Source: Sacculina carcini (taxonomy: Eukaryota > Arthropoda > Thecostraca > Sacculinidae). From it: 64,000 bases of DNA. Where the stretch lies: positions 3,676,349 through 3,740,348 of the forward strand of contig OU696584.1 of the NCBI GenBank assembly GCA_916048095.2, written 5' to 3'. A program made the position numbers and the translations under genes. Under the pieces are notes generated by a model. It was not told where the DNA came from. It ran no database searches and saw only the letters and a list, made by a program, of their open reading frames with translations. Shown here piece after piece: positions 16,884 to 50,212 of this stretch; the stretch's first letter is position 1; every line of letters begins with the position of its first letter.

Positions 16884-18803
16884 AATTAAATTGGTAAACA
16901 GACTCGTATATCTCATTGGTAAACAGACTCGTATATCTCCCTCATTCACTGCGAAAGAGTTTGCAAATTTCCTCATATCTAAGGCTTCTTCTCTTTTGGG
17001 AATTAACTCGTCCCCAGCACCAGTACCTCACACAGTAGTTAAAAGTGCAGTGAATCCTTTACAGTCATTTGACCAATTAACTTTATTCGACACCTTACAA
17101 ATTCTAAGGAAAACAAGACCTTCGTCATGCCCTCGAAATCCCATTTGCTATGGAAAGATTTCAAAAAGTATCTACTTATTAGCCCCTTTTTATACCCACC
17201 TCATCAACAGTTCCTTCCTCCAAGGCTCATTCCTCGCTTCAAAACACGCGGTTGTCAAACCTATACTAAAAAAACCTAATTTAGACACGTTTTCTACAGC
17301 AAATTATCGCCCCATTTCCCTTCTAACATTCTCAGCCAAAATTATTGAAGCTGCAATTTACAAACAATTATCGCATTATATCATGGATAACAATTTTGTC
17401 GATCAATTTCAATCTGGTTTTATCAAACATAGATCCACCGAAACCGCTCTTCTCAAAATTCAAAATGACGTTCTCCAACAGTTTTCATCTAAAACTCCAA
17501 TTATCCTTATTTTAATCGACCTTTCCTCAGCTTTTGATTTAGTTGATCATTCTGTCCTCATCCAGGATCTTCGTTCATTTGGTATATCTGATTCTGCTCT
17601 TTCACTGTTCATTTCTTACCTATCCGACCGTAGCTTTTCTGTCCAAATTGATTCCGATGAGTCCCCTTCACATCCAATCACTTCTGGTGTCCCTCAAGGA
17701 TCTATCCTCGGTCCCATTCTGTTCAACATTTTCATGTACTCCATTTGTCCTCTCCTCCGATCCATGTCTCTATCTTATCACCTCTTTGCCGACGATATAC
17801 AAATATATTTACCTGCTTTTCGCGAGAACGATATTCCTAACATATTCAACGCTATCAATTCCTGGGCTTCCTCTAGATCACTTGTTATTAACCACTCTAA
17901 AACCCAATTCCTACTATTGCAAACCCCTTGTATGGATTTCCAAGTGAACCAACTGAAAATACTGCCACAAGTTAAAAGTCTTGGTGTATATATTGATGCC
18001 TCACTCAGCTTCTCTCACCACATTAAAATCACTTTACGAAAGTGTCGCTATATACTACGTAACCTCTATATGTCGCGTAAATACCTAGATCAACGTTCCT
18101 CCATTGCTCTAATTAATGCCTTTATTTTCCCCCATCTAAATTATTGTTCCTCTTTGTTTTATTCTCTACCAAAAAAAGACATTTCTTCCTTCCAATCTAT
18201 TCTCAACCAATCGTGCCGTTTTGTTTTCAGACTTCCTTCCCGTCATCCTACCTCTCGACACCTAAAAACATTGAGATGGCTTCCTTTTAAATATATGACC
18301 CAACACAAAATATGCTGTCTCACTTTCAAATTGATCAACTCCCCCTATCCTCCACCCTATCTGAAGGAGCTGGTAGTGCCAGTCTCACACAACACTAACA
18401 CTCGATCATCTAGCGCCCTTCTAGAACCCCGAGCAGTTTCCGAATCATCATGGTCTTCCAAATCCTTCCAATACATTGCCCCCCGTCTGTACAATAAACT
18501 TCCCCGTTCAATTAAATCTTCCAGCTCCTATAAATCTTTCAGCAGCAAATTATATAAACATCTTTTGGATGTGTACATAGATTCATGAGCCCACACCGAT
18601 ATCATTCGTTTTTCTGTTGTATACGTGTTTTTGTGTGACTCTTGTGTGTCTTATCCCGCTGTGAGCCCAAGTTTTTATTTTTTATTTTTTTATGATGCAT
18701 TTTCATTTGTGTGTACATTGTGTGATTTGTATGTATATTTTCATCCATGCCAATACTTTGTTGTATAAAGTGGCAATACATTTCTGATTTCTGATTTCTG
18801 ATT
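16884..18803 (+). mobile_element. 5'-truncated non-LTR element, TTTCTGA tail
   Basis: This LINE copy lies in the hairpin repeat: the left flank is CGTTCGGAATAATT and the repeat resumes at AATTCAGACACG near 18808. A possible duplication ATTAAA occurs at both edges. The 3' end carries about three units of TTTCTGA (18780-18802), a different tail from the TTG family, so it is a separate lineage. At the 5' end a 25-bp unit (ATTGGTAAACAGACTCGTAT plus ATCTC) is present twice in tandem (about 16890-16939). Confidence 0.8.
16891..18588 (+). pseudogene. Non-LTR reverse transcriptase, endonuclease missing
   Basis: 565 codons stay open from the truncated 5' edge to TGA at 18586. The RT blocks run in order: HAVVKPILKKPNLD, NYRPISLLTFSAKI, LIDLSSAFDLVDHSVL (catalytic Asp), SGVPQGSILGPILFN, FADDIQIYLP (catalytic DD), INSWASSRSLVINHSKTQF, LGVYIDASLSF, and the C-terminal LRWLPFKYMTQHK and APRLYNKLP. 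The endonuclease and the start of the gene are absent, so although the frame is clean the product would lack target nicking. The listed start at 16891 is not an ATG. A recent 5'-truncated insertion explains the lack of stops. Confidence 0.85.
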
Positions 18804-20260
18804 AAAAATTCAGACACGAAAAAATGAAAATTGTCTGAATTTTTTATCATAATGTTTCCAAAGTATATTTATAAATTAACATCATCTAGCATTGAAACCA
18901 TCCCGTATAGCGGAACAATTAGAACAAAAAGTAAAATAAATATTGAATTAATAAAATTAAACTAATACAAATTAAAAAATTAAAAAAGCCAACCCATAAA
19001 AAGTCTTAACCAATAGAAAAGTCTAAATATGAATGTGTTTATGTTAGATGTGGCAAAATATTTTCCCTCGAACTGCCTCGTATTTAAACCCGCCCGTCGT
19101 GCGGAACTATAAATAAAATATAATGAATCAAAAAGCAAAAAGCTTATCCAATATAAAATTATAAATGTGTATATTCTTGTTTTAATTATTGACGAATTTT
19201 TTTCCTCAACACTGCTCAAGTTCACACCCATCCTTCGTGTGTAGTAATTCAGAAGTGTAACACTATCAAAACAATGAAGCCTTCTGTCATCTCTATAATT
19301 CCAGATTTATGCGTCCGCTAAAACAGCATATTCATATAGTTGGCATTGCATGATATTACAACCCATATCCTTATGCAACTTAAGCTTATGCAACTTGAAA
19401 TTAAACCAATTAAATTATACAGTAAAATTCAGTAGTTAACTTTGTTCCCAGTAGTATTTTACCCGCCCGTCGGGCGGAACAATTCATGTGTAAATATTGA
19501 GGACAATAAAGCCTTTCTATTCAGTACAGTGTAGTATTAATTAAACTGTACCCAATAAAACCACACCATCCATGCTTGGAGCTAATATGATGCATTCTTA
19601 ATTGTGATTGGGCTTCAGTGAAATTTGATCGGTGTATATTCCTGTGTAATCGAAAGTGCGCATAATAGCTGTCAAATTGGTAATATGTGCTTTTGACTTT
19701 ACACCGCCGTAACTTCCTTCAGATACACTTTGGAAAATTACAAATTATACCGCATTGTAGAAAACAAGATTTCTAGCACGATGGTATAATTTATTTTTAT
19801 GTATAACAAATAGTTACTGAGAAATAGTAGAAAAATTAATTAATTTTAGTCGCCCGGTGTTCAAGTGTAATTTTGGATGTATTTGAGAATTTTGTCAATT
19901 TTACACGTTTTTTGTATCATTTGTGGGTATAAATTATAACTTATCTTGTAGAACACAAAATTATCTACACATTAGTATATTCCTGTGTAATCGCAAGTGC
20001 GCATAATAGCTGTCAAATTGGCAACATGACATTTTGACTTTACACCGCCGTAACTTCCTTCAGATACACTTTGGAAAATTAAACATTATACCGTATTGTA
20101 GAAATCAAAATTTCTAGCACGATGGTATAATTTATTGTAATGTGTAACAAATAGTTCCTGAGAAATAGGTAGAAAAATGAATTAATTTTAATCACCCGGT
20201 GTTCAAGTGTAATTTTGGATGTATTTGAGAAATTTGCCAATTTTACACGTTTTTTGTATC
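18804..20260 (+). repeat. Hairpin-motif dispersed repeat, copy 3
   Basis: Collinear with 13434-14540: a hairpin unit near 19095, the variant hairpin near 19466, CCATGCTTGGAGCTAATATG, and CCGCCGTAACTT modules near 19700 and 20045. It is cut at ATTTG 20261-20265 by the insertion of element A and resumes at 30862. The empty site GTATCATTTGTGGGTATAAA can be seen at about 14168. No gene. Confidence 0.75.
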
Positions 20261-20265
20261 ATTTG

Positions 20266-20595
20266 TGTAGGCTGAACAAAGGAACGAAACAAATGTATTC
20301 ACCAGCAACAACTCTATCACACCGTATTCACCGTACCACCTCTCACACTCGCAACACCCCAAGCTCCACTGACCCACGTCATTTTCCACATTGCAAAAGC
20401 GTCCTGCAAATTCTATTCCAAGCGATCCGATTGCACATACGCACACGCGCACAGGCTCGCACATACACACAAGCACATACACACACACATGCACACGACA
20501 GCGCGCAGACATTTGCAGAACCATTCATTCTAATTATATGCAACACTGAATGCAACTGAATGACGAAATCGGTCAACTATACACATCAAACTACA
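20266..20595 (-). repeat. LTR of element A (3' LTR)
   Basis: It starts TGTAGG and ends CTACA on the plus strand, so it has TG...CA ends in either reading. It matches 30532-30861 over its full length. A CACACA-rich stretch in the middle produces spurious frames on both strands. No polypurine tract of the usual strength abuts it; the nearest is GGGGTGTG on the minus strand near 20652. Confidence 0.92.
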
Positions 20596-21279
20596 CACCA
20601 TTGTGATTTAATAATCATTATCATTTCGAATTGAACACGAAACTTGACACACCCCAATAGAAACGACTTAAAAACAATTATATCCCTATAAACTACACTA
20701 GCTACTCACATAGTCATTCATCCAGATTGGCCGTCTCACCTCTCTCCTCGGTCGCTCTATGGTAGCTGCAGATTCTGAATGTGTGCTCTCGTTTTCACCG
20801 TTCGGAGGCGGACGAATCTCCTCGGGCCCTGGATCAATAACGGGCCGCAGGTCCAGCACATTGTTAGGCATACCGTCAACTGAGATGTTGTTGTTGGAGT
20901 TCACTCTCGTAACGACGCCCTTGCTCCAATGAGAAGTGCAGCGCGCGTTGGGGGGCTTCACCCACACTTCATCCCCCAATTTGACTGTCTTCATCTCCGC
21001 TTTGAGAAATATCTCTGTGACATCTCCAGTCGTAAGTGTGCACTGATCGTTGCGGTACGCTTTCGTCTTTTTGACCATTCCGCGGAGTACAATTATACCA
21101 GAACACGGCTTCAGTAGGGCAAATCTCCCCTCTCTCAGCGATAGCTTTAACAGTTCGGTGGTTTCTTTCAATTATGCCATTGCCTCCTGGCCGATATGCT
21201 GCACGAAATAACCTCTGAACTTTCCACCGTGTCAACATGTTTCCCAAATGCTGGGACCGGAATGCAGCACTGTTATCTA

Positions 21280-21447
21280 TACCATTTACAAATTGAATTG
21301 ATCCAAATGAAATCTGATTTGATCCAAATGAAATCTGATTTGATCCAAATGAAATCTGATTTGATCCAAACGAAATCTGATTTGATCCAAATGAAATCTG
21401 ATTTGATCCAAATGAAATCTGATTTGATCCAAATGAAATCTGATTGA
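21280..21447 (+). repeat. Left inverted repeat of T with 21-bp subrepeats
   Basis: After the 20-bp tip come about seven tandem copies of a 21-bp unit built on ATCCAAATGAAATCTGATTT. One unit differs (CAAACGAAATC). Tandem subterminal units are candidate transposase binding sites. The frame at 21196-21447 (IQMKSDL repeated) is only a translation of the repeat. Confidence 0.92.
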
Positions 21448-21876
21448 TAAAATTAAACCTTAATTGAAAAATGAAAACAAATTGTATCTAAATGTAATGA
21501 TTGGCTGTTAATTATGCAAGAAATAATTTGTATTTGTATATAATGATATATATTTTCATAACTTTTGATATTTCCTATTTACATCTTACATTTTGTATTA
21601 CTAATTTCAAACATCCCAAGTTATGAAGGGAGTACTGGATTGATTAATTAAAAGTAGGTGAAAATATTGAATATAACGAAATATAATGATGGAAAATTTA
21701 GTATAATACATGATGATGATGATATCGTGGCCTAGTTTGGTTTGGTACATTCTATTTTGCGAAGTAATCAGAGTAACAAGATTTGATGTGAATGAATCAA
21801 TTTTGATGCCAATTTATACAACAAACGGTCAAGACAAGAGACAAAGCACAGCAATGAACACAAGACAGTAAATTTT

Positions 21877-23097
21877 TCAAGATATCTCCACGAGATCCTC
21901 TTGTTTTATTGCTGCTGAGAAATACCGCTCCACCCTGTTGGTGAAACCGTGCAGCTGCGTCTGGTCAATTTGGCTGATGCAATCCAGCGCTATATTTTCC
22001 AGCAGCTGCATCCTCTGCTCGGCCAGTGAGAGGGTAGCGTTTTCTCTAGCAGTGAGGCTCGACAATCGAGGTATTTCTTCTCTCAGCCTTCTTTTGATGT
22101 GACTCTTCAGACAGCTCCACAGCAGCTCAATTGGATTCAACAGGTATGAATATGGAGCCATTCGGAGAAGCTGCACCTCATCATGCTGTCCAAATATCTC
22201 CTCAATGTTGCTGTGTGCTGGAGCATTGTCTATGATGATGGTGGGCTGGTGAATTTCGGCTTGGCGACATTCGTCTATGAGACAGCGAAACCATTCCGCA
22301 CAGTTTGGTTTCTTGAATGAGCCTCTTTGCGTGGATATCAATACGAGTCTGGAACTCGTCATTGCACCGATTATGTGCAAGTTTGCTCCTTTGCTAGATG
22401 GCTGCACTACAGACGCCCTTGTTCCCACTTTTGATCTTCCTTGGTTCCGCCTACAATACAGGTTGAAGTTGGTCTCATCGACCCATACGGGAGTGCGACC
22501 TTCGGACCGGATGCGAAAAAGTTCTTCTATATATGTCGCCCTCTTCCTTTTGTTAACTTCGCTGTTCATTGCGCTGACGACAGGCCGTACTGTTTTCAGA
22601 GAAAACATTTCTCCATCAAGCCAATTTTTTATGGTGTTTATGCACACCTGACATCCGTGCGCATCATTGATCTTAATTTGTAAGTCTGCCAATGTGATTG
22701 AAGGCGATTTCTCCACTTCGGTGATGAGAGTGTGTATCATTTCAGGAGTTTTTTTTGCGTAATTACCTCCCCGACGTTTCGGTAAGTCCTGATTCTTCCT
22801 CAACCAATGATACACAGTCTTGATTTTCACTCCTAAAGTATTAGCAACATTTTTCCAATCATTCTCATTGTGGTATGCTTCCATAATTCTTTTTCTATCA
22901 TTTTCACTGATTTTATTGTACTTCATTATTACTTTTGCACTATTAACACTAGCGAACTGATAAGTTGTAGTACTATTGTCAAATATAACATGGCGTGCCT
23001 GAGCAAATTTCTGCTCAATCGACATAAAGTTGCCAAATCTTCTTATTTTTAATATAAATACGCTTGTTTTCGATGTTTTATACCCAAAAAAAATCAT
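21877..23097 (-). CDS. Transposase of T, DDE type
   Basis: Catalyses cut-and-paste movement of T. The best start is the ATG at 22926 (MKYNKISENDRKRI), giving about 349 residues; the frame is open further upstream but that part has no family-like sequence. From that ATG: a helix-turn-helix DNA-binding region (residues about 5-45, WKNVANTLGVKIKTVYHWL), a second helical region (75-105), then the catalytic domain with WVDETNFNLY (Asp150), IIIDNAPAHS (Asp233) and NPIELLW (Glu267), a spacing of about 33 residues between the last two. The pattern belongs to the IS630-like branch of Tc1/mariner seen in arthropods, flatworms and oomycetes. No stop or frameshift is visible, so the gene could be functional. 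Confidence 0.88.
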   Translation of the reverse strand: MIFFGYKTSKTSVFILKIRRFGNFMSIEQKFAQARHVIFDNSTTTYQFASVNSAKVIMKYNKISENDRKRIMEAYHNENDWKNVANTLGVKIKTVYHWLRKNQDLPKRRGGNYAKKTPEMIHTLITEVEKSPSITLADLQIKINDAHGCQVCINTIKNWLDGEMFSLKTVRPVVSAMNSEVNKRKRATYIEELFRIRSEGRTPVWVDETNFNLYCRRNQGRSKVGTRASVVQPSSKGANLHIIGAMTSSRLVLISTQRGSFKKPNCAEWFRCLIDECRQAEIHQPTIIIDNAPAHSNIEEIFGQHDEVQLLRMAPYSYLLNPIELLWSCLKSHIKRRLREEIPRLSSLTARENATLSLAEQRMQLLENIALDCISQIDQTQLHGFTNRVERYFSAAIKQEDLVEIS

Positions 23098-23126
23098 TTT
23101 TCTGATTAAAGTTTAATTTTTTCACT

Positions 23127-23289
23127 TATGTTGAACTTGGATCAAATCAGATTTCGTTTGGATCAAATCAGATTTCATTTGGATCAAATCAGATTTCGTT
23201 TGGATCAAATCAGATTTCATTTGGATCAAATCAGATTTCGTTTGGATCAAATCAGATTTCATTTGGATCAATTCAATTTGTAAATGGTA
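23127..23289 (-). repeat. Right inverted repeat of T with 21-bp subrepeats
   Basis: Reverse-complement counterpart of the left repeat: tandem units built on TTGGATCAAATCAGATTTC with C/T alternation at one site (ATTTCG or ATTTCA), then the tip CAATTTGTAAATGGTA. In this arm the two unit variants alternate, whereas the left arm is almost uniform. Confidence 0.92.
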
Positions 23290-25499
23290 TAGAAGAAGTT
23301 CATCTACCGGTCCCCGCTCGAGAAATATGCTGTTCAACACCTCGGTCATCTCCTGTGTGTCTTCTCTTCTCAGCTTTCTACAGAGGGCGAAACGGCCTGG
23401 TCCACAATCGATGATGGTCAGAAAGGGTACTTGTCTATAGTGTGTGACATCCACAGCTAGTCGACTCCAAGTATGTCCACGCTTAATTCACCGCCTTGAT
23501 GTACGACAGGTGCGGGATCGATCGACTGACATCGAATACAGTTACGTACGACTTTTTTCACGGTTTCTCTCGAATCTGTGGGATCAACTTTTCTCGCTAG
23601 GGACAAAGTCCTTTTCACCCCCATATGATGTTGATCGTGCAAATCTCGGATATTTACAACAGCATTGACGCAATGCTGAGAAACTTCGCTTACGTATTTC
23701 ATCAACCATTGTTTATTCACCCTGGTGAGCACGTCGGCTCTATTACTTTTCGAAGGTACCAGGTGTACCACCACGCGCAAGTCAAATTCCTCTACGAGTT
23801 ATTTGAGATTTCCCAGTCGTCTTTTTATAATCATTTCTGCAGCTCCTTTGGTGTGAATCCGCTTCTCCGCGTATAGTGCAGACTGCAGCCAGGCGGCCAC
23901 GGTCGCGGAGTCGGTCATCAGGTCAATCGTCTTCATGTGCCATTTGAGTGCTAGGTTAACACCCTTGAGAACAGCCTCCAACTCTGCCACATTAGTATGT
24001 TTTTCATCATCCTTCTTACGCAACCACGCAGCATCTTCAACAATTTTTCCATCGACCGCTAAAACCACACCAGTTGCGATGCTGCTGGCATCACACCACA
24101 CCTCGCAATGCGCTCCACTCGTAACACTCCAAAGTCCTTTGACTGAATCATCGGTTTTGACTTTTTCATCCACCTGCTTTATCATATGCATTGCTGAGTC
24201 GCCGATAAAGTCATCCCAACGAGCCCCAGATGCACGTCGCTTGATATAGCTACACGCTACTCGCAGCCACCCAGCTACCGGGTAGTGCCCCACTAGCATG
24301 CCACAGCTGGAGAATAACTTCCTTCTGGTCAACACTTCAGGAACTTCAGGAACGATATTACCCCTCCGAAATACCAGCTGGTCACCGGAGCGCGTCAGCT
24401 GCAGCCCCAACACCGATCCACCATCGAGCGACTCCGCTGGTTTCGCAATCAAACCAAACGCCTTCAAGTGCTTGCTCACGTCCGCTGTAGAGACTATGGC
24501 TTCATTTACCAGTATGTCGTCAATATATGAACTTGTTCCGCGCCCGACAGCTTCGTTCTTGTTCAAGATTGTCTTCAAAATTTTCGACATGATTCGCGGA
24601 GCCGAACTTAAGCCGAAGCCAAGACGCGTCAGACAAAAAATTTTACCCTTGTACTCGACTAACTGGTATTTCCACAGCTCTTTGTGAATTCCCAGCTGTA
24701 AATATGCAGATTTCAGGTCTAATATCGCTGCTTTGTCTCCCACTCGTTGCCATTTTCTCAGCTTTTCCTCGCAAACATCGGTGAAATCGTCACCCGTATG
24801 ACACTCGATGTTTGCGTTCAATTCGCGAAAATCTAGCACTGGACGGATTTTACGCTTTTGTGGCTGATTTACGGCCATCAGCGGAATCACCCCTGAAACA
24901 GCACCATCCCATGGCAGTAAAATCCCCTCTGAAATCCATCCTGGCACTTCTTTGTCGAACTCTTCCTTGACTCGATCATCCTTTCCTGCACCATAGCTGC
25001 CCACTTGATTTTTCACCTCAGCTGGCATGTCATTCTTCCACCGCCACTTCACGGTCCACCTCTCACCATCAAAATCAGCACTGAAGTCAGCGTCATATAT
25101 AGTTAATCGTGCCAAGCTGCTGACATCTTCACGACTCATACACGACTCGCGTTGGCTACCACCGGCCACTGCAACTTTACTCAGCTTTTACAACTAACAC
25201 CTTGTTGAGTGATCGTAACGCCTCCCATCAAATTGATGACATCAAGCCCGACAATGACATCCACACCTTCAATCAGCCGATCAGCAACAACGACTCTCAG
25301 TCGGATACACCTTCCGTTCACAACTAGTGCCACATCATCAGCATATGTACACCTAATTTGACTCCCATCAAAAGCCTGCACGAACACCGTACCATCAGTC
25401 TGTGACACGTATTTCTCATGAACAACGCTTGTAGAGCACCCAGTGTCTATCAGACCTTTGGTGTGTGTATCCCCAAAAACAACATCAATGATGGGTAAC

Positions 25500-25503
25500 T
25501 GTA

Positions 25504-25594
<91 letters not shown>

Positions 25595-25820
25595 TTTTTA
25601 CATATTGCTTATCATGTTAATTGCATTGATGTTAATTGCTTGTTAATTTATAATTGTGAGAGTTCCTGAGCTGCCATGGCAACGCAACGGAAAAATGTAA
25701 CACGGGGGATTTTTGGGAGGGTGAGAGAATAGTGAGGGGAACGGAAGGAGTGTTTTACGTGTATTGGAGTTTGTTGAAAGTGTTGTTTCATTGTTAACTG
25801 TTTTATAATAAAAAACCACA
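25500..25820 (+). repeat. 5' LTR of B, contains (TA)n
   Basis: It begins TGTAGTATATAT, contains a TA run of about 85 bp (25504-25591), and ends AAAAAACCACA. The gag start codon follows only 12 bases later. The 3' LTR has a TA run about 30 bp shorter. Confidence 0.93.
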
Positions 25821-25832
25821 AGCTATTTCGGC
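25821..25832 (+). promoter_or_regulatory. Conserved leader AGCTATTTCGGC after the LTR
   Basis: AGCTATTTCGGC directly follows the 5' LTR of B and, on the minus strand, directly follows the 5' LTR of A (30531-30520), although the two LTRs are unrelated in sequence. That is the position of the primer-binding site, but it lacks the leading TGG of a site for an intact tRNA 3' end. It may pair with an internal tRNA segment or another primer. I did not find its complement in either LTR. Confidence 0.5.
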
Positions 25833-26573
25833 ATGGCAAAAATTTCCCAAGATATGATAAAGCCATTCAATGGAGACGGAGATGTTGTCGCATGGATAAA
25901 AAAAGTGCGACTTGTTGCCAAGCTCCAGAAAGTGGATGATGTGGCGAGGTTGCTCCCACTGTACTTGGAAGGCTCTGCCCTTGCAACATATTTAGAAATG
26001 GAGGAGAATGATCAGGAAGATGCTGACAGAATCGAAGAAAAACTAAAGGAAGTATTTTCAGACAGTGCCTTCATTGCGTATCATAAATTGACCAGAATGA
26101 GATGGACAGGTGAGCCCATTGATGTGTTTTCAAATGAAATAAGGCGGTTGGCTGGACTGTCAGGATTTGTTGGAGAAGGTCTTGATAATATTGTAAAGTT
26201 ATCATTCGTGAACGGATTTCCTGATGACATCAGCAAGCAGTTGCAGCAGATCAACAATGTGGGGCGTGTTCCATTGGGCGAAGTGCTTAGCAGGGCCAGA
26301 GTACTTGCTGTGAGAGGAGAGAGCTCCGTGAACGCAGTGGCGGCGAACAACACGCTGACTGACAGAAGAAAAACTGCAGTGCGCCGGAACTCATTCGAAG
26401 ACAAATGCGTCGTACGCGGAGAGCCTCATATAGCGCGAAGTGGCAGCCATAGAAAATCAGTGACGTGTTTTAGATGTGGCAAGGAAGGCCACATTGCAGT
26501 TCAGTGCACCGCTGATCCGGGAAACGAGCAAAGGGGAACTGGTGCGCCAGCAGTCACCCCTTTGACTCACTGA
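25833..26573 (+). CDS. Element B Gag
   Basis: 246 residues from the ATG at 25833 to TGA at 26571-26573. It is the structural protein that would form particles and bind the element RNA. The N-terminal and middle parts (MIKPFNGDGDVVAWIKKVRLVAK near residue 10, LPLYLEGSALATYLEM near 45, then the helical WTGEPIDVFSNEIRRLAGL) are the retrotransposon capsid region. One CCHC zinc knuckle, CFRCGKEGHIAVQC, lies near residue 210. The element A Gag is related but has two knuckles. The stop codon overlaps the pol start by one base (TGATG), in the +2 frame, which suggests coupled reinitiation or frameshifting. No defects seen. Confidence 0.9.
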   Translation: MAKISQDMIKPFNGDGDVVAWIKKVRLVAKLQKVDDVARLLPLYLEGSALATYLEMEENDQEDADRIEEKLKEVFSDSAFIAYHKLTRMRWTGEPIDVFSNEIRRLAGLSGFVGEGLDNIVKLSFVNGFPDDISKQLQQINNVGRVPLGEVLSRARVLAVRGESSVNAVAANNTLTDRRKTAVRRNSFEDKCVVRGEPHIARSGSHRKSVTCFRCGKEGHIAVQCTADPGNEQRGTGAPAVTPLTH

Positions 26574-29407
26574 TGGCGCAGCCTGGCAGACTGCCTCTGG
26601 TCAATGTTTTAGTTGCAGGCAGAAATGTTCGGGCATTAGTGGATACCGGCTGTTCAACAGTTGTCGTGACGACGAAGATTGTTAAGAATTATGAGGCAGG
26701 TGGTTTCATAAGTGCGTTTGACGGGAGGCAGGTGCAATGCCGAGGGAAGACCTGGGTCAACTTGACAGTGGAAGGCAGAAGCGTGAGAGCGCGTGCGATG
26801 GTAGTTGATAAGATAGTGAACGACATAGATTGTGTATTAGGGATGGATGTGATTGATTGTCTTGGTGGTGTATTTGTGACAAATAATGGTGTCAAATTTG
26901 GGGATTGCAGTTGTGTTGCTGTGGGTGCTGAGACACCAGTACCAGGCAATATAACATACCATGGTAAGAAAAATGAGAGTACACAATTGAGTATCAACGA
27001 TAAAGATTTTTTCGCGTCGTTCGATGGAGAAAAATGGGAGGTAGAATGGTTTGTGAAGGAAGACTCCCCAGTGTTAAATAACTCTATCGGCTGCTACAAT
27101 CAAACAATAAAGTCAGAAACACGTCACGAGTTTGACACCGAAGTGAAACGTTGGATAGCAGAAGGGATTCTGGTGCCGTGGACAGGCAACACAAAGTCGG
27201 GTGTATTACCGTTGCTTGCAGTGGTGCAACCGACGAAGAGAAAAGTTCGCCCAGTACTCGATTTTCGAGAATTAAATGAATATGTGAGTAGTCATACGGG
27301 TGATGAATTCATCGATATATGTAATGAAAAATTGAGGAAATGGAGGTGCATCGATGGTCCTGCGTCTGTGGTAGATTTGAAGACGGCATATCTGCAAATT
27401 CACATGTCAAAGAAATTATGGAAATATCAGTTGGTCAAATACCGCGGCAAAGTCTACACTCTGACGAGAATGGGTTTTGGGTTATGTTCAGCCCCTAGAG
27501 TAATGACAAAAATTGTGCGAACGGTGCTGCAGCAGTCAGATGTCATTGAGCGTGCTACCGACTCATACATCGACGATATTATCGTAAATGAGGCCATAAT
27601 TTCAGCGAAGGCAGTGGTGCAACATCTACAGAAATATGGATTGGTGGCAAAACAGCCAGTGCCTATTGAGGAAGGTGCTGTGCTGGGCTTGAAAGTGTTC
27701 AGAAACAGAAATGGTGCACTTGTGTACAAAAGAGGAAATGAAGTTCCACAGTCGGTTGATAAATTAACAAAAAGGGAATTGTTCTCGTTGTGCGGAAAAT
27801 TGGTAGGCCATTACCCGGTGGCGAGGTGGTTGAGACTGGCCTGCAGTTTCATTAAACGCAGAGCGCATGGCGGACATTGGGACAGACTGGTCGGTGACAA
27901 TGTTGTGAAAATGATTCGAGAAGTGTTAGATAGAGTAAAGCGTGGTGACCCTGTAGGGGGTGTGTGGAATGTGCCAAAAACAAAGAAGGGGGTGGTGTGG
28001 TGTGACGCTAGCAACTTGGCCGTTGGCGTGGCGCTGGAGATTGGTGGTCATATTGTTGAGGATGCAGCGTGGCAGCGGAAGGAGTCCGATGTTCACCACA
28101 TCAATGTGGCTGAACTGGAAGGGGTATTGAAAGGATTGAATTTGGCTGTCAAGTGGAATTTGACCGATGTGGAAGTACGCACTGATTCAGCAACGGTATT
28201 GGGCTGGGTCAACGCAGCCTTAAATAAGGAGAGAAGAATCAAGACAAAAGGTGCAGCTGAGCTTCTGATAAAGCGACGGTTGGGTATACTGTGTGACTTG
28301 GTGGAGGAGCTCGAGCTGAAATTAAAGATTGTGCGAGTTCCCACCACGGTAAATAAAGCAGACGAGCTGACCCGCGTCAAGAAAGAATGGCTGGCAATGC
28401 CCGTAGAAAGTGAAGAAGAGAATCATTGCACCGCGTCGAGTTCTAGTGTATGTGCTATGACATCGGAAAGACTCGCTGAACTCCATGAATTACATCATAT
28501 GGGTGTGGATAGAACACTCTATTTAGCGCGACAAGAGGATCCAAGAGTGACACGAGACCAAACACAACGTGTTGTTCAATGCTGTGTTCGATGCCAATCA
28601 ATCGATCCAGCACCAGTCCAGCACACGTCCGGACATCTGAATGTGAGCAAGTCATGGTCAAGATTGGCCATTGACGTGACTCATTACCGCCAGCAAACAT
28701 ATCTGTCAATTGTGGACTGCGGTCCAGGTCGGTTCGCCATCTGGCGAGAGTTGCGTGCTGAGAACGCAGAGCTGGTGTGTGCCATTCTCGATGAGATATT
28801 CAGGGAAAGAGGTCCAGTTCTCGAGCTGCTCATGGACAATGGTATGGTGTTTAGATCAGAGCAAATGAGAAGACTGATGGAAAGGTGGAAGATACAACCC
28901 TATTTCAGAGCTGCATATCGCCCAAGTGGTAACGGCATTGTAGAGCGTCACCATCGTACCATCAAAGCTTTGGCAGAGAGAGCTCAAGTGACACCGTTGT
29001 CGGCAGTGTTTTGGTACAATATGACGCCACGCGAGGGCTTGACTCACAATTCGGTACCACATAAACACGTCCATGCATACGAGTGGAGAAATCCATCGTT
29101 AGAAATGCCGCCGAGACGCGAGTCCACTCAGTCTTCCATCAGCGTAGGGGACGAAGTTTGGGTGAAGCCACCCGTTCCTAAATGTACAACGCAGTGGACG
29201 CGCGGTAGAGTAACAGACATCAATTCGCCAAACAACATTTCTGTAGACGGGATGCCGAGACATATATTGGATGTGCGGCCGGCAAGAGACGCTCATGACG
29301 AACGCCACGTTCCTACAGATGCAGAGCACGACGATGTGGAATTGCCTCGGCGCTCAACAAGACAACGGAAGACCCCGGCGTGGCTAGATGATTATGTTAC
29401 TGATTGA
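26573..29407 (+). CDS. Element B Pol: protease, RT, RNase H, integrase
   Basis: 944 residues. Aspartic protease: ALVDTGCST with Asp24. RT: VLDFRELN near 232, DLKTAYLQ near 267, SYIDDIIV with the YIDD box at 332-335. RNase H: WCDASNLAVGVAL near 479 and VRTDSATVLGW near 529. Integrase: HELHHMGVDRTL with CCVRCQ zinc site, catalytic core D701, D755 and E791 (35 residues between the last two), and a C-terminal domain with VGDEVWVKPPVPKC. The order PR-RT-RH-INT is that of Ty3/gypsy. The RT blocks are divergent from the common gypsy type, and I do not assign a clade. The frame is uninterrupted and all catalytic residues are in place. The start ATG overlaps the gag stop. Confidence 0.92.
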   Translation: MAQPGRLPLVNVLVAGRNVRALVDTGCSTVVVTTKIVKNYEAGGFISAFDGRQVQCRGKTWVNLTVEGRSVRARAMVVDKIVNDIDCVLGMDVIDCLGGVFVTNNGVKFGDCSCVAVGAETPVPGNITYHGKKNESTQLSINDKDFFASFDGEKWEVEWFVKEDSPVLNNSIGCYNQTIKSETRHEFDTEVKRWIAEGILVPWTGNTKSGVLPLLAVVQPTKRKVRPVLDFRELNEYVSSHTGDEFIDICNEKLRKWRCIDGPASVVDLKTAYLQIHMSKKLWKYQLVKYRGKVYTLTRMGFGLCSAPRVMTKIVRTVLQQSDVIERATDSYIDDIIVNEAIISAKAVVQHLQKYGLVAKQPVPIEEGAVLGLKVFRNRNGALVYKRGNEVPQSVDKLTKRELFSLCGKLVGHYPVARWLRLACSFIKRRAHGGHWDRLVGDNVVKMIREVLDRVKRGDPVGGVWNVPKTKKGVVWCDASNLAVGVALEIGGHIVEDAAWQRKESDVHHINVAELEGVLKGLNLAVKWNLTDVEVRTDSATVLGWVNAALNKERRIKTKGAAELLIKRRLGILCDLVEELELKLKIVRVPTTVNKADELTRVKKEWLAMPVESEEENHCTASSSSVCAMTSERLAELHELHHMGVDRTLYLARQEDPRVTRDQTQRVVQCCVRCQSIDPAPVQHTSGHLNVSKSWSRLAIDVTHYRQQTYLSIVDCGPGRFAIWRELRAENAELVCAILDEIFRERGPVLELLMDNGMVFRSEQMRRLMERWKIQPYFRAAYRPSGNGIVERHHRTIKALAERAQVTPLSAVFWYNMTPREGLTHNSVPHKHVHAYEWRNPSLEMPPRRESTQSSISVGDEVWVKPPVPKCTTQWTRGRVTDINSPNNISVDGMPRHILDVRPARDAHDERHVPTDAEHDDVELPRRSTRQRKTPAWLDDYVTD

Positions 29408-29426
29408 TCTTCAGATCAAGGGGGCA

Positions 29427-29430
29427 TGTA

Positions 29431-29491
<61 letters not shown>

Positions 29492-29717
29492 TTTTTACAT
29501 ATTGCTTATCATGTTAATTGCATTGATGTTAATTGCTTGTTAATTTATAATTGTGAGAGTTCCTGAGTTGCCATGGCAACGCAACGGAAAAATGTAACAC
29601 GGGGGATTTTTGGGAGGGTGAGAGAATAGTGAGGGGAACGGAAGGAGTGTTTTACGTGTATTGGAGTTTGTTGAAAGTGTTGTTTCATTGTTAACTGTTT
29701 TATAATAAAAAACCACA
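29427..29717 (+). repeat. 3' LTR of B
   Basis: Starts TGTAGTATATAT after the polypurine tract and ends AAAAAACCACA at 29717, followed by the duplicated GTAAC. The TA run is about 57 bp. The minus-strand frames in this stretch are shadows. Confidence 0.93.
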
Positions 29718-29777
29718 GTAACTGTGCATGAGGCGCCTGACGGTAAGAAGGGCGGTTGCTGGCGCACGCACCGCCCC

Positions 29778-30503
29778 CTAGGAGTTTTCCGAACTCTGGT
29801 TGGGACACTCACCTGAAATATGACGGCTCTGGCCACATTTAAAACACACCACCGTTTTCTCGGTACAGTCCCGGATGAAGTGCGCGCCACCACATCGAAA
29901 GCACCCGCCCACCTTCGGTCTTGACGGAATTCGGCTCCCTTTTCCACGTCCGCTACTTTGTGCACTCCTTCCGGCTTTCAGAGCAACAGCAGCATGTCCA
30001 CCATGAGAGGTATGTCCATTCGTAGTCAGCACTCTTGCGTGCCCTATCAGCACACTCATCGAGAGGCTCATGACATCATCAATGCGGCGCAAGATAGAAC
30101 TGACGTGGTCGGGAAACCCATTAACAAAACAGAGCTTCACAATATGCTCCAGCGCAGCTTTGTCGAAGCGAGCCAGTCCAGCCAGACGCCGCAGCTCATT
30201 GGCATAGGCGTCGACTGACTCGCCACCCCACTTCCTCTCGGATAGCTTCCCGAACGCCACGAACGCATCATCACTGAACGCCTCCTTCAATCGCGTTTGA
30301 ATCGCATCGACGTCATTCTGAGCTTGTTCATCCATCTCCAGATAGACCGCCAGAGCCTCATCCTCCAGATAGAGAGGCAAGAAGCTTGCCAAATCAGTGA
30401 CCTTCGTTAGCTTGGCTACCAAATTTACTTTTTTTAACCAAGCCACCACGTAGCCCTCGCCTGTGAAAGGCTTCACCATGTCGCTTTTCACAATTCCAGC
30501 CAT
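29778..30503 (-). CDS. Element A Gag
   Basis: About 241 residues from the ATG at 30503 (MAGIVKSDMVKPFTG); the frame is open further upstream but that reaches into the LTR. The capsid region matches the B Gag by pattern: GYVVAWLKKVNLVAKL, LPLYLEDEALAVYLEM, WGGESVDAYANELRRLAGL and CFVNGFPDHVSSILRRID. Two zinc knuckles lie near the C terminus, CFRCGGAHFIRDC and CFKCGQSRHISGEC, one more than in B. The frame ends in TAG at 29778. Pol of the same element continues on the far side of element B. The gag frame itself is intact. Confidence 0.88.
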   Translation of the reverse strand: MAGIVKSDMVKPFTGEGYVVAWLKKVNLVAKLTKVTDLASFLPLYLEDEALAVYLEMDEQAQNDVDAIQTRLKEAFSDDAFVAFGKLSERKWGGESVDAYANELRRLAGLARFDKAALEHIVKLCFVNGFPDHVSSILRRIDDVMSLSMSVLIGHARVLTTNGHTSHGGHAAVALKAGRSAQSSGRGKGSRIPSRPKVGGCFRCGGAHFIRDCTEKTVVCFKCGQSRHISGECPNQSSENS

Positions 30504-30531
30504 AGTCGAGTGCAAAATAGCCGAAATAGCT

Positions 30532-30861
30532 TGTAGGCTGAACAAAGGAACGAAACAAATGTATTCACCAGCAACAACTCTATCACACCGTATTCACCGT
30601 ACCACCTCTCACACTCGCAACACCCCAAGCTCCACTGACCCACGTCATTTTCCACATTGCAAAAGCGTCCTGCAAATTCTATTCCAAGCGATCCGATTGC
30701 ACATACGCACACGCGCACAGGCTCGCACATACACACAAGCACATACACACACACATGCACACGACAACGCGCAGACATTTGCAGAACCATTCATTCTAAT
30801 TATATGCAACACTGAATGCAACTGAATGACGAAATCGGTCAACTATACACATCAAACTACA
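30532..30861 (-). repeat. LTR of element A (5' LTR)
   Basis: Full-length match to 20266-20595. It is followed on the right by the duplicated ATTTG and then by the resumed host repeat (TGGGTATAAATTATAAC). Confidence 0.92.
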
Positions 30862-30866
30862 ATTTG

Positions 30867-31226
30867 TGGGTATAAATTATAACTTTTCTTGTAGAACAAA
30901 AAATTATCTACACAATAGTATAATTTTTATAGCTTTACCATTGCTGGTTTATGAGGAATAGATAGCGGAATATTGACCAAAATATTCACGTTTTTTGGTG
31001 CTATTTTTGCCTTTTTGACTTTGTCATTTACACTTCACACCGCCGTAACTTTTTTTAATACACTTTGGAAAATTAAAAAATATACCGTGCTGTATAAAAC
31101 AAAATTCCCAGCATGATGGTATTATTTATTTAGATGTGTGATAATCAGTTTTTGAGAAATAGAGAAAAAAATATAGAAAATTGGACGCGTTGAGTTTAAT
31201 TACAATTTTGAATGTAGATTGATTTT
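30867..31226 (+). repeat. Hairpin-motif dispersed repeat, continued
   Basis: Continuation of copy 3 across element A: GCTGGTTTATGAGGAATAGA, a CCGCCGTAACTT module near 31042, GCATGATGGTAT and GAGAAATAGAGAAAAAA. It matches 14560-14890 and 60070-60400. It ends where a gypsy pol fragment begins. Confidence 0.7.
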
Positions 31227-31826
31227 TTTGCGATTGAGAGGCCCTGGATTATCATCCCAGGAGATGTATTTTTCCCGTGATCAATTCTCTCATTCAACAT
31301 TCCTCTCGATGATCACAAGCTCATCATGCATCAACACATCAAACGCCTTTCGAACCATCCTCACAACTATTCTTCCAAATCGCGCCATCGCCGACCCATG
31401 CCGAGGCCCATCCATCTGAAGGTCGGAGACTTGGTATATCTTGCTGTTGACCGTGACACGGCCCAACCTCGTCCTCGATACTTGGTTGTATCCATCCAGG
31501 GTGATTTCTGCCAAATACGCAAATTTACCGAGTCACAACTTCGAGCCAAGTTGTACTCCGTCAGACTAAACGAATGTTATCATATTCCGACGATTGAACA
31601 ACAAACACATTTTGTGCGTGACACCGACGATGAGCAGAGCTCGGCAGAGGACGAGTTGGTAGCGACCGTACCACCAGAAATATCGTCTCCACCATCCGAG
31701 TTAGACGAGGCAAACTCACATCTGAACCATTTGAGTGACCCGGAGAGTAACACATTCACTCCCACCGCGAGACCTCAACGTGCTAGGAAAATGCCTAAGA
31801 GATTTGAGGAATTTGTGCTGTCATGA
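31227..31826 (+). pseudogene. Gypsy-like integrase C-terminal fragment
   Basis: The C-terminal part of a retroelement integrase. The first segment (GPGLSSQEMYFSRDQFS, 31240-31300) is the end of the catalytic domain, in a different frame from the rest, so there is a frameshift near 31320. The main frame (31326-31826) contains the small beta-barrel region VGDLVYLAVDRD, RYLVVSIQGDFCQIRKF and LRAKLYSVRLNEC, followed by an acidic tail and RPQRARKMPKRFEEF before TGA. This pattern is typical of K02A2.6/Mag-like gypsy pol ends. No LTR was identified on its right, where a (TA)n run and the Penelope cluster start. Confidence 0.7.
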
Positions 31827-31944: not shown

Positions 31945-32229
31945 CGCATAAAGAAGTTGCACTCACGCACCCGGTAATGTTATATGATGAAAAAGTATAC
32001 TTCATCGGGCACAATTATTTATGTATTAGTACGACGTTTCGCCTCAACAAGGCTTTATCAAGTACTGTTTTATAAAATACATCAAAAAGACGAGCCAAGA
32101 ACACAACATATTTAGTAGATAAAAATGAATATAAACATTAAGACACGCGTATATGATTTTGACACACTTTTAAGTAAATAATATATAACTAACAATCGAC
32201 AATTACATGCAATAAATATTACCATTAAA
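31941..32229 (-). repeat. PLE2 terminal repeat (pseudo-LTR), left outer
   Basis: About 289 bp, nearly identical to 34704-34991 and, inverted, to 35765-36055. It contains the hammerhead-like block (minus strand, about 32038-32068) and CGGGTGCGTGAGTGCAAC. In the two inner copies the same segment supplies the 5' end of the ORF. Confidence 0.88.
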
Positions 32230-34776
32230 TCAGAATTTGCAATTAAGTTCAATTCCTTTGCAGCCGTTCATGATGCAGCTGGAGTCATTTTCTTGAATGT
32301 ATGCTGCCTCTGCATATCTTCTAGTAGCATCGTCTAATATTCCGCTGTGTATAACTGTCCACTTTATCGATACTTCCATTTTGTAATGCTCTTCCATGAA
32401 ATGCTTTATAATTGGACCTCCCAGCTTATAGTTGGAGTGTTCCAGGATCCTCACACGTACTGGTCGCGAGGTCTCACCAATGTAGATTTTTTCACATACC
32501 GTGCACATTATCTTATATATGACATATTTCCTCCAACATAGTTTTCTGTCGGGACTCATGGATGTGGCACAGGTATCACATTGTGGTGCGCACCTGAAAC
32601 GCTCTCTTGGTGGAGCGAAAATCCGCTTCAGCGGTCGACCCGGGTCGAACCACACCCGTATTTTCCCTTGGAGACCTGTTCTCTTGATGAGGGAATAACA
32701 TTGTCGGCGACTGCTCTCACCCAGATACGGTAGTTTGATTAAATATTTGTCTTCCTTGCTTTCAGCTTGCTTGTCTACTCTGATATCTCTAATTGCTTTG
32801 TTCTTGCTCCTTTTGATCACATAGTCGGGGTAGCCATTTTGTCTAAATCGGTTCTCAATGGTCTTAATGGAAGTCTGAAGTGTCGCCGGTGTAGTGGCTC
32901 TTCTCGAAGCCCTCACAAATTCCCCATATGCTATTGCACACTTAGCACTTTTTGGACCATTAGACATCCAAGATATGATTGAGCCGCTGTGGTGAGGCTT
33001 CATGTATACCTCAGATACAAATTGTTCGCCGTTGTAGCTGATGTTGCAGTCCAAAAAAGCCAGTCTGCCATTCTTCGGCAGCTCAATAGTAAACTCAATA
33101 AAATTTGAGATGGAATTGGCGGTAGCTAGCAACACTGCGGTGTCAATGTCGTCATACCAAGCTACAAATATATCATCGATGTATCTCTTGTATTTGAGTG
33201 GCCGATGAAATGCCGTTTGAAATTGCTGGTCCAAATAGTCGGCGAATATGATGGCCAGTTGAGGAGCCAGTGGATTTCCCATTGATAATCCTTCGATCTG
33301 TTTATAGAGTTTAGCTCCCTGAATGACGACATCATTTGATATGGCCATATTGACCAAATCAACAATATCCTCAACCGCCATCTCATGAAACATATCGTCT
33401 TTGGACTTGTTGTTAATTAAAAAGTCACGTAACACTTCATCTAGGCCCTTATTGTTGTCATCTGAGCAGCGTGGAATAGTGCCATATAAGTTTTTTATGT
33501 CAAGAGAGGCAAACCCTTTTACTCCGCATTGTGGTAGTGTTTTAAGCCACTGCAAAAACTCATCTGAACTTCTAAGATGTGCGGGTACATTATTGAGAAG
33601 TCCATCCAATTTCTTCGAAAGGCATTTTGCTAGTTTTGTGGCTGGCCCGTCGACTGCAGCAACTATGGGTCGCCCTTTCAGTTCTCCGACCTTGTGGTCT
33701 TTGGGTAAGGTGTAAGCCGAACTAGGCATTGGGAAGCTACATTTGAGCTTAGAGAGGCAGCTCTGAACAGTTTTGTTCTTTCTATATTTTTGTATAGCGT
33801 AGTCGAGGTTTTTGTTGAATTGGGCTTGCCTGGTGGATGGAAGCACAGATTTAATTTCCTGAAAATTTCCTCCCTCGACTGTTGATTCAGTCAGCATCCT
33901 CTCATAGTGCTCAGTGCTGAGTGCCATTAGACGTCCGGTCTTGTCTGTAGGAGTGATGACGGTATTGCTTTGCATCTTAATCTCTTTGATCTTATGCAAT
34001 TCATCTGGCATTTTATTCGGTAAAAGTTTATGACTGTTTTTCAAAATCTTCATCGCCCCACCAGCAAATTCCTGTATTGCTTCATTTGGAATGCCATCTT
34101 TTTCCATTTTTGCGATGCTTTTTTGAATTGTGGCTCCACACTCTTTCGTAATTCGTCGACAATCTTTCCTGCAATATTGTTGAGGCACGTATGATGGACC
34201 ATTGTTTAGCAAATTTCTGTGAGGAAGACCATCGTTTGACTTGTCTACAAACATTATCCTGTCGCTTTGTTCCGTCGCATCAAAACCGCACTTTGTCACC
34301 TTCTTCTCGGCCGTCGACAGCAAGTTATTAAACTTTTTCATTTTCTTTGTGTGCAGCTCATTACTCCATTCCACCATCCTGTTATGTTCATTTTGTTCAA
34401 GTGGAAATACTGCACAATTAAGGCTTTGCAGGCGTTCATATTCACAATCCAGTGTGAGCTGTAGCCATTCCTTAGCTTGTTTAGCCACTAATCTTTCGGC
34501 TTTTTCCGAAGGAAGATTATTTTGTAGAATGTTCTTAACTCTGATACCTTTAGGAATAATCTTGTTTTTTCGGAAAAGTCGCAAAAATCTGATGTTGCTT
34601 CTGACTTGTTCCAATTTTTTGGCTTGGTGAAAGTTTGTCGAAATCATCTGTGATGTATGCATTCTTGGCTCGCTTTTGTCTGTATTTTGAGTATTTGAAT
34701 CAATTTCGCATAAAGAAATTGCACTCACGCACCCGGTAATGTTATATGATGAAAAAGTATACTTCATCGGGCACAA
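32230..34776 (-). CDS. PLE2 RT + GIY-YIG endonuclease, intact copy
   Basis: 848 codons without a break. The polymerase copies element RNA at a nick made by the endonuclease. The N-terminal region (residues 1-260) is family-specific; its first 25 residues come from the terminal repeat, and the first true ATG is at residue 4 (MKYTFSS), with MHTSQ at 39 as an alternative. RT: ITPTDKTGRLMAL (275), AYTLPKDHKVGELKGRP (354), FASLDIKNLYG with catalytic Asp426 (about), LSMGNPLAPQLA (497), RYIDDIFVAWYDD (531). Linker with a Cys cluster (CAPQCDTC and on). GIY-YIG nuclease from about 751: YVIYKIMC and IYIGETSRPVRVRILEH, ending NGCKGIELNCKF. All expected catalytic motifs are present. The second copy (35982-38529) has one frameshift. 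Confidence 0.9.
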   Translation of the reverse strand: MCPMKYTFSSYNITGCVSAISLCEIDSNTQNTDKSEPRMHTSQMISTNFHQAKKLEQVRSNIRFLRLFRKNKIIPKGIRVKNILQNNLPSEKAERLVAKQAKEWLQLTLDCEYERLQSLNCAVFPLEQNEHNRMVEWSNELHTKKMKKFNNLLSTAEKKVTKCGFDATEQSDRIMFVDKSNDGLPHRNLLNNGPSYVPQQYCRKDCRRITKECGATIQKSIAKMEKDGIPNEAIQEFAGGAMKILKNSHKLLPNKMPDELHKIKEIKMQSNTVITPTDKTGRLMALSTEHYERMLTESTVEGGNFQEIKSVLPSTRQAQFNKNLDYAIQKYRKNKTVQSCLSKLKCSFPMPSSAYTLPKDHKVGELKGRPIVAAVDGPATKLAKCLSKKLDGLLNNVPAHLRSSDEFLQWLKTLPQCGVKGFASLDIKNLYGTIPRCSDDNNKGLDEVLRDFLINNKSKDDMFHEMAVEDIVDLVNMAISNDVVIQGAKLYKQIEGLSMGNPLAPQLAIIFADYLDQQFQTAFHRPLKYKRYIDDIFVAWYDDIDTAVLLATANSISNFIEFTIELPKNGRLAFLDCNISYNGEQFVSEVYMKPHHSGSIISWMSNGPKSAKCAIAYGEFVRASRRATTPATLQTSIKTIENRFRQNGYPDYVIKRSKNKAIRDIRVDKQAESKEDKYLIKLPYLGESSRRQCYSLIKRTGLQGKIRVWFDPGRPLKRIFAPPRERFRCAPQCDTCATSMSPDRKLCWRKYVIYKIMCTVCEKIYIGETSRPVRVRILEHSNYKLGGPIIKHFMEEHYKMEVSIKWTVIHSGILDDATRRYAEAAYIQENDSSCIMNGCKGIELNCKF

Positions 34777-34991
34777 TTATTTATGTATTAGTACGACGTT
34801 TCGCCTCAACAAGGCTTTATCAAGTACTGTTTTATAAAATACATCAAAAAGACGAGCCAAGAACACAACATATTTAGTAGATAAAAATGAATATAAACAT
34901 TAAGACACGCGTATATGATTTTGATACACTTTTAAGTAAATAATATATAACTAACAATCGACAATTACATGCAATAAATATTACCATTAAA
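34704..34991 (-). repeat. PLE2 terminal repeat, left inner
   Basis: It overlaps the first part of the intact ORF on one side and the 3' end of the partial copy on the other. It differs from 31941-32229 at a few bases (for example GAAATTGCAC against GAAGTTGCAC). Confidence 0.88.
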
Positions 34992-35648: not shown

Positions 35649-35764
35649 AGAGAAGATAGAAGAAGAAGATAGATAGAAGATATGCAGAGGCAGCATACAT
35701 TCAAGAAAATGACTCCAGCTGCATCATGAACGGCTGCAAAGGAATTGAACTTAATTGCAAATTA

Positions 35765-50200: not shown

Positions 50201-50212
50201 GACAAAAACTAC

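What the first reader, a model, noticed from the sequence alone, without database searches (positions are those of the whole stretch)
20261..30866. Three elements nested with all target duplications readable
Element A carries ATTTG at both ends, B inside it carries GTAAC, and T inside it carries TA. The host repeat reads through A, and A's integrase reads through T. A and B both have LTRs that differ at about one site, so three insertions happened within a short time at one locus. This gives relative ages and exact boundaries without any database.
Basis: seen in the sequence. Interest (0 to 1): 0.8.

Follow-up and report, generated by a model that had tools for sequence, protein, structure and literature searches.

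The report
Nested retroelements with unusual tRNA primer site

Summary
A (20266-30861, minus strand) is an LTR retrotransposon with ATTTG duplications. B (25500-29717, plus strand), a relative, lies at the start of A's protease region with GTAAC duplications. T (21280-23289), Tc1/mariner-like, lies in A's integrase with a TA duplication. LTR pairs differ by one substitution each (A 1/330; B 1/235 outside a (TA)n tract of 43 versus 28 units). A host-repeat copy at 14219-14617 aligns gap-free across A's empty site. Corrections: B and T lie side by side in A, in unknown order; T has no clock; one substitution allows a wide age range.

Nesting is ordinary. Directly after the 5' LTR both A and B carry AGCTATTTCGGC, the exact complement of nucleotides 1-12 of animal tRNA-Phe, not of a tRNA 3' end. 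Of 18 relatives with at least 28 residues before the Gag core, 13 (12 distinct) show peptides compatible with AGCTATYTCGGC, over all three frames. I infer a lineage primed by a short 5' fragment of tRNA-Phe. Complementarity is shown; cleavage and priming are inferred. Eight literature searches listed no such case; subscription papers and repeat databases were not searchable.

The parts
20266..30861 (-). Element A, LTR retrotransposon, interrupted by T and B; pol decayed
   Evidence: LTR pair 329/330 identical, TSD ATTTG; gag/pol matches to B, A kept in three separate stretches
20261..20265 (.). ATTTG target duplication of A, left
30862..30866 (.). ATTTG target duplication of A, right
20266..20595 (-). 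A 3' LTR
30532..30861 (-). A 5' LTR
30520..30531 (-). A primer-binding site AGCTATTTCGGC, directly after the 5' LTR; complement of tRNA-Phe nt 1-12
   Evidence: tRNA-Phe 5' end from PMC10505166 and PMC7038984
29778..30503 (-). A gag ORF (from the ATG), zinc knuckle PF00098
   Evidence: 44% identical to B gag
23802..25187 (-). A pol piece with RVT_1, DUF7047, RVT_3; ended by an in-frame stop at 23799-23801
23460..23798 (-). A pol piece with integrase zinc-binding domain PF17921
25500..29717 (+). Element B, LTR retrotransposon with open gag and pol
25495..25499 (.). GTAAC target duplication of B, left
29718..29722 (.). GTAAC target duplication of B, right
25500..25820 (+). B 5' LTR, begins TGTAG(TA)43
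29427..29717 (+). B 3' LTR, begins TGTAG(TA)28
25821..25832 (+). B primer-binding site AGCTATTTCGGC, directly after the 5' LTR; complement of tRNA-Phe nt 1-12
25833..26573 (+). B gag (ATG directly after the primer-binding site), zinc knuckle
26519..26525 (+). GGGAAAC, candidate -1 ribosomal frameshift heptamer, in register with the gag frame
   Evidence: starts at third codon position; stem after it not exceptional, z -1.09, 28 of 200 shuffles fold as well
26516..29407 (+). B pol ORF in the -1 frame: protease, RT, DUF7047, RNase H, integrase; 963 aa
   Evidence: fold of RT-RNase H
21280..23289 (-). Element T, Tc1/mariner-like DNA transposon inserted in A's integrase
   Evidence: TIRs, TA duplication
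21278..21279 (.). TA target duplication of T, left
23290..23291 (.). TA target duplication of T, right
21877..22926 (-). T transposase, DDE_3 (PF13358), 33 residues between second D and E
21290..21445 (+). 21-bp tandem array in T's left TIR (7.5 copies)
23137..23279 (+). 21-bp tandem array in T's right TIR (6.9 copies, inverted)

Best explanation
Shown: an LTR retrotransposon (A) inserted into a host repeat; later a related element (B) inserted in the opposite orientation at the start of A's protease region, and independently a Tc1/mariner-like element (T) inserted into A's integrase. A and B belong to a lineage found in several invertebrates; in both, the primer-binding site directly after the 5' LTR is the exact complement of the first 12 nucleotides of tRNA-Phe, and peptides of relatives point to the same word. 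Inferred mechanism: the primer for minus-strand DNA is not the 3'-CCA end of an intact tRNA but a short 5' fragment of tRNA-Phe whose 3'-OH lies at nucleotide 12, next to the LTR edge. In ordinary elements plus-strand synthesis copies about 18 nt of the tRNA until a modified base stops it (recalled). Here the copied tag would end where the fragment ends, at tRNA nucleotide 1, which explains why the shared word stops exactly there. Gag-Pol is probably made by -1 frameshifting at GGGAAAC. My confidence: nesting 0.97; site truly matches the tRNA-Phe 5' end 0.85; 5' fragment as the working primer about 0.55.
For: Boundaries, duplications and empty sites. Both PBS words are identical although A and B gag share about 44% of residues, and the sequence diverges right after the word. 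A Phe(GAA)-tRNA forward primer reads GCCGAAATAGCTCAGTTGGGAG (PMC10505166; that it is the human tRNA's first nucleotides is my recall), and a Drosophila tRNA-Phe 5' probe ends in AGCTATTTCGGC (PMC7038984). Of 240 listed relatives, 127 hold a recognisable gag core and 18 have at least 28 residues before it; 13 of these 18 (13 of 40 at a 20-residue threshold) contain a peptide compatible with AGCTATYTCGGC: 3 in frame 0 (SYLG), 7 in frame 1 (KLFRQ / KLSRP), 3 in frame 2 (AISA). 3000 shuffles of the word gave a mean of 0.044 and a maximum of 7; for the T form alone 6 of 18 against a maximum of 3. 11 of 13 are compatible with the LTR-like end ACA just before the word; 0 of 13 with TG there, as pairing beyond nucleotide 12 would need. 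The 14 gag cores compared have a median identity of 54%. Self-priming is not supported: longest complementary stretch in either LTR is 5 nt, and the best wobble match is no better than in shuffled LTRs.
Against: DNA was seen only for A and B; for relatives the word is deduced from peptides, which do not fix every base: another one-base variant, AGCTATTTAGGC, fits 6 of the 40 longer extensions, as many as the T form itself. The C form was defined after looking, and shuffling does not allow for relatedness of the proteins. 5 of 18 extensions lack the word (P0071, P0107, P0239, P0251, P0256); some of these may simply be natural Gag N-termini. Seven of the 13 (SYLG or KLSR) fit only the C form, which mispairs once with GCCGAAATAGCT unless their hosts' tRNA-Phe has G at position 6; this was not checked. 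The host's own tRNA-Phe was not seen (no tRNA in the window; the genome tool did not complete). No evidence of a 12-nt tRNA-Phe fragment: the Drosophila 5' fragments reported are about 35 nt (PMC7038984), and such a half would put its 3'-OH in the wrong place.
Confidence: 0.6

Rival explanations
1. Ordinary nested transposons only: the 12-nt word is a chance resemblance to tRNA-Phe, conserved for another reason (packaging or translation signal).
For: Only 12 nt; the primer was not observed. Nested insertions of this kind are commonplace (general knowledge). For relatives only peptides were seen.
Against: Position (directly after the 5' LTR, where the primer site lies), exact register with tRNA nucleotide 1, identity in A and B, and recurrence in three frames in distant relatives. 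A chance 12-nt match to the 5' end of one of about 50 tRNAs is about 3 in a million (my arithmetic).
Confidence: 0.15
2. The primer is another small host RNA whose 3' end is GCCGAAAUAGCU, for instance a tRNA-Phe-related or SINE-derived RNA, not a 5' fragment of tRNA-Phe itself.
For: A normal 3' end would then prime, without the need for a cut at nucleotide 12. The host's small RNAs were not available (no call).
Against: The word shared by A and B ends exactly at the tRNA's first nucleotide. No search of host RNAs was possible; Rfam on the window alone gave 0 matches at gathering thresholds, which does not test this.
Confidence: 0.15
3. Tf1-type self-priming: the 5' end of the element's own RNA folds back onto the site.
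For: Known for elements such as Tf1 and proposed for Tj1 (PMC4600332 passages).
Against: Longest complementary stretch in either LTR 5 nt; wobble-tolerant best matches 10 of 12 (B) and 9 of 12 (A), at chance level.
Confidence: 0.03

Closest known systems
Cut-tRNA-primed elements (Drosophila copia half-tRNA; fungal FunCo1 with a site complementary to an internal region of tRNA-Lys)
   Same: Primer site complementary to a part of a tRNA other than its 3' end, so a cut tRNA would be needed (copia half-tRNA: PMC5371799 passage; FunCo1 site: PMC5445492 passage)
   Different: FunCo1's site matches an internal region, and copia's too (recalled); here the complement is the extreme 5' end, nucleotides 1-12 of tRNA-Phe, in a pol with protease-RT-RNase H-integrase order
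Ty3/gypsy elements, e.g. GyRex2 (similar to Boudicca)
   Same: LTR structure, 5-bp duplication, gene order protease-RT-RNase H-integrase
   Different: GyRex2 has TGGTGACCCTGAAGTA, complement of a tRNA-Trp 3' end (PMC3587641 passage); element D of this window has the similar TGGTGACCCTGACGTG. A/B lack the RNase H profiles PF17917/PF17919 found in C and D and carry PF23088 instead
Tf1/Tj1 self-priming elements
   Same: No tRNA 3'-end site
   Different: No complement of the site in the LTR
Tc1/mariner transposons (for T)
   Same: TA duplication, TIRs, DDE_3 transposase
   Different: 33 residues between second D and E, as in 30 of the 39 relatives that could be parsed out of 55, and TIRs built of 21-bp tandem arrays

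Membership tests
LTR retrotransposon (order) | Paired LTRs with TG...CA ends and a 4-6 bp target duplication | tested here: met
   for A and B
LTR retrotransposon (order) | gag and pol with protease, RT, RNase H, integrase | tested here: met
   B; RT-RNase H fold, mean pLDDT 89
Ty3/gypsy | Order protease-RT-RNase H-integrase | tested here: met
   protease 29-113, RT 283-359, RNase H 493-606, integrase 716-803 of B pol
Ty3/gypsy | Typical RNase H profiles PF17917/PF17919 | tested here: not met
   not listed for B, P0061 and P0073 at E up to 5; present in window elements C and D
Ty3/gypsy | RT placed inside the Ty3/gypsy tree | not tested
Ty1/copia | Integrase before RT | tested here: not met
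Elements primed by a tRNA 3' end | Site beginning TGG, complement of CCA | tested here: not met
   AGCTATTTCGGC in A and B
Cut-tRNA (half-tRNA) priming | Site complementary to a non-3' part of a host tRNA | tested here: met
   complement of tRNA-Phe nt 1-12, judged on a published Phe(GAA) primer and the Drosophila tRNA; the host's own tRNA not seen
Cut-tRNA (half-tRNA) priming | A tRNA fragment with 3'-OH at the LTR-side end of the site is used | not testable with these tools
   needs small-RNA and strong-stop DNA sequencing
Self-priming (Tf1 type) | Site complementary to the 5' part of the element's own RNA | tested here: not met
   (whole LTRs of A and B searched; transcript start not known)
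Tc1/mariner (T) | TA duplication, TIRs, DDE transposase | tested here: met
Tc1/mariner (T) | A named subgroup such as DD34E | tested here: inconclusive
   33 residues between second D and E; no tree made

The most novel reading that the evidence does not exclude
A large lineage of animal LTR retrotransposons starts reverse transcription from a 12-nt 5'-terminal fragment of tRNA-Phe, so that the length and end of the primer-binding site are set by the fragment's own ends and not by a blocking modification; the T/C change at position 7 would then record host tRNA-Phe variants with A or G at position 6.
Probability: 0.45. Interest if true: 0.75.

Novelty: new variant of a known kind. Interest (0 to 1): 0.5.

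Why it matters
The nesting itself teaches little that is new. If the primer reading holds, it gives 5' tRNA fragments, now studied mostly as regulators, a direct role in starting retrotransposon DNA synthesis, the reverse of the 3' fragments reported to block such elements (PMC7773854 and PMC7515703 passages). It would also mean that software looking for complements of tRNA 3' ends misses the site in this lineage (inference). It is directly testable in any host animal with small-RNA libraries.

Tried and rejected
Rejected: self-priming; a coding explanation for the conserved word, since it appears in three frames; filing A/B as Ty3/gypsy, since the usual RNase H profiles were not listed and no tree was made; 'three elements nested one in another', since B and T lie apart in A.

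Led nowhere: DNA of relatives in viral contigs (no relative) and genome contigs (none); the 33 viral loci holding ACAAGCTATTTCGGC gave no tblastn match to B pol at E up to 1e-3; tRNA scan of the window (0) and Rfam at gathering thresholds (0); PDB by sequence for the T transposase (0 at E up to 0.01); fold comparison gives many RTs of similar score and places nothing; the stem after GGGAAAC is not exceptional. Papers naming DUF7047 or PF23088: 0. Papers on a tRNA-Phe, tRNA-fragment or 5'-end primer site, or holding the words themselves; no such case among the listed titles and abstract starts. From ten papers I read passages only, none in full. I claim nothing about print outside this open-licence library.

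Caution on counting: the pol list shows 120 of 576 hits and the gag list 120 of 171; 113 of the 240 lacked the gag core pattern; the 28-residue threshold and the C form were chosen after looking; P0091 and P0291 have identical gag cores and P0268/P0287 are 81% alike.
Full report
What is there. Element A (20266-30861, minus strand) has two 330-bp LTRs that differ at one base (20501 G, 30767 A) and is flanked by ATTTG on both sides. Its host DNA is a repeat present in many copies in the window. When the two host flanks are joined (300 + 100 nt), seven of nine non-self matches in the window run across the junction; the best, 14219-14617, aligns over 399 nt, 94.5% identical and without a gap, the other six at 74-93% with gaps. 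This is the empty site, read from within the window.

Element B (25500-29717, plus strand) lies at the start of A's protease region and is flanked by GTAAC. Its LTRs are 321 and 291 bp; the length difference is a (TA)n tract right at the LTR start, 43 against 28 units, and outside it there is one substitution in 235 bp. B has an open gag (25833-26573) and an open pol (26516-29407, 963 aa) in the -1 frame relative to gag. The heptamer GGGAAAC at 26519-26525 is in the register that -1 frameshifting needs. The RNA after it folds into a firm stem, but 28 of 200 shuffles fold as well (z -1.09).

Element T (21280-23289) lies in A's integrase with a TA duplication. Its TIRs are about 196 nt and consist mostly of 21-bp tandem units, 7.5 on the left and 6.9 on the right. 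Its transposase is a DDE_3 protein with 33 residues between the second D and the E; of 55 relatives 39 could be parsed and 30 have the same spacing.

Order and ages. A preceded B and T. B and T sit at separate places in A, so their order is open. One substitution per LTR pair fits recent insertion, but the Poisson 95% range for one event is 0.025-5.6, so A's divergence could be 0.01-1.7%. A's pol has an in-frame stop at 23799-23801 and three changes of frame (near 25112-25145, 23473-23478 and 20988-21023) when its stretches are compared one by one with B. By a rough estimate of mine this is more damage than the LTR divergence predicts. Insertion of an already defective copy, indel errors of the assembly, or LTR homogenisation could each explain it; the data do not choose. 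A also lacks an evident polypurine tract before its 3' LTR, while B has AAGGGGG.

The primer-binding site. In both elements the twelve nucleotides directly after the 5' LTR are AGCTATTTCGGC, preceded by CTACA (A) or CCACA (B), after which the two sequences diverge at once. These are the only two places in the window with this word, even allowing one mismatch. It does not begin with TGG, so it is not the complement of a tRNA 3' end. Its complement GCCGAAATAGCT is the first twelve nucleotides of tRNA-Phe: a published Phe(GAA)-tRNA forward primer is GCCGAAATAGCTCAGTTGGGAG (PMC10505166, passage; that this is the 5' end of the human tRNA is recall), and a Drosophila tRNA-Phe 5' probe ends AGCTATTTCGGC (PMC7038984, passage). 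Nucleotide 13 would need a G before the word; both LTRs have A.

Is it conserved? No DNA of relatives could be had. But some predicted Gag proteins start upstream of the usual ATG, and their extra residues translate the region between LTR and gag. I noticed KLFRQ and AISA there, ran a gag search to enlarge the sample and counted. Of the 240 listed relatives (120 pol, 120 gag), 127 have a recognisable gag core; 18 of them have at least 28 residues before it. Six are compatible with AGCTATTTCGGC, and 13 with AGCTATYTCGGC: SYLG three times, KLFRQ three and KLSRP four times, AISA three times, which are the three frames of one DNA word. At a 20-residue threshold it is 13 of 40. In 3000 shuffles of the Y word the mean was 0.044 and the maximum 7; in those of the T word the maximum was 3. 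Two of the 13 have identical gag cores (P0091, P0291). Residues just before the word fit an LTR end ACA in 11 of 13; none fits TG there. Five of 18 do not show the word. Peptides do not fix each base: the variant AGCTATTTAGGC fits six extensions too (KLFR and SYLG), though not the KLSR or AISA ones (for the count; the codon reading is mine). The 14 gag cores compared (12 distinct relatives, A and B) have a median identity of 54%, so twelve shared nucleotides just before the start codon are hard to explain by recent common descent. T and C forms are mixed in the small, weakly supported gag tree.

How it most likely works. For the site to serve as primer site, the primer's 3'-OH must lie at its LTR side, which is nucleotide 12 of tRNA-Phe, in the D stem. 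The primer would thus be a short 5' fragment of tRNA-Phe. When plus-strand synthesis copies the primer it would run off at nucleotide 1, which accounts for the sharp end of the shared word. The complementarity in A and B is shown and conservation is supported from peptides; the fragment, its cut and its use are inferred. Self-priming is not supported. Known relatives of the idea are copia's half-tRNA (PMC5371799, passage) and FunCo1, whose site matches an internal part of tRNA-Lys (PMC5445492, passage). A difficulty is that the tRNA-Phe 5' fragments reported in Drosophila are about 35 nt (PMC7038984, passages). The C form mispairs once with the standard tRNA-Phe and should occur in hosts with G at position 6; this is a prediction, not a result.

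Verdict. The primer-binding site shared by A and B is the part worth following: a new variant of cut-tRNA priming, strong in sequence pattern and untested in mechanism.

Noticed in passing
21290-21445 and 23137-23279: T's inverted repeats are built of 21-bp tandem units (7.5 and 6.9 copies), perhaps multiplied transposase-binding sites.
   Followed up: partly
25505-25590 and 29432-29487: B's LTR begins with TGTAG followed at once by (TA)n, 43 against 28 units, so slippage outran substitution.
   Followed up: partly
54491-59722 (minus) and 46652-52382 (plus): Two further LTR elements with Ty3/gypsy-type RNase H profiles; the first has a site TGGTGACCCTGACGTG similar to the tRNA-Trp site of GyRex2, the second has no TGG directly after its 5' LTR.
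   Followed up: partly
31981-38778: A 99% identical inverted pair of 3.1 kb with RT frames, one with a GIY-YIG match below the curated cut-off (Penelope-like, name recalled), plus a further 946-bp direct copy and a (TA)n tract at the outer edge.
   Followed up: no
7764-8914, 13059-14973, 18801-20267, 30862-31229, 60060-63710: Many diverged copies of a host repeat family, some in tandem with an offset of about 341 bp; A inserted into one of them.
   Followed up: partly
20596-20608: A has no evident polypurine tract before its 3' LTR although its LTRs are nearly identical.
   Followed up: no
26516-26573: Gag and pol of B overlap with a GGGAAAC heptamer in register; by coordinate arithmetic of mine A's pol is also in the -1 frame relative to its gag.
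   Followed up: partly
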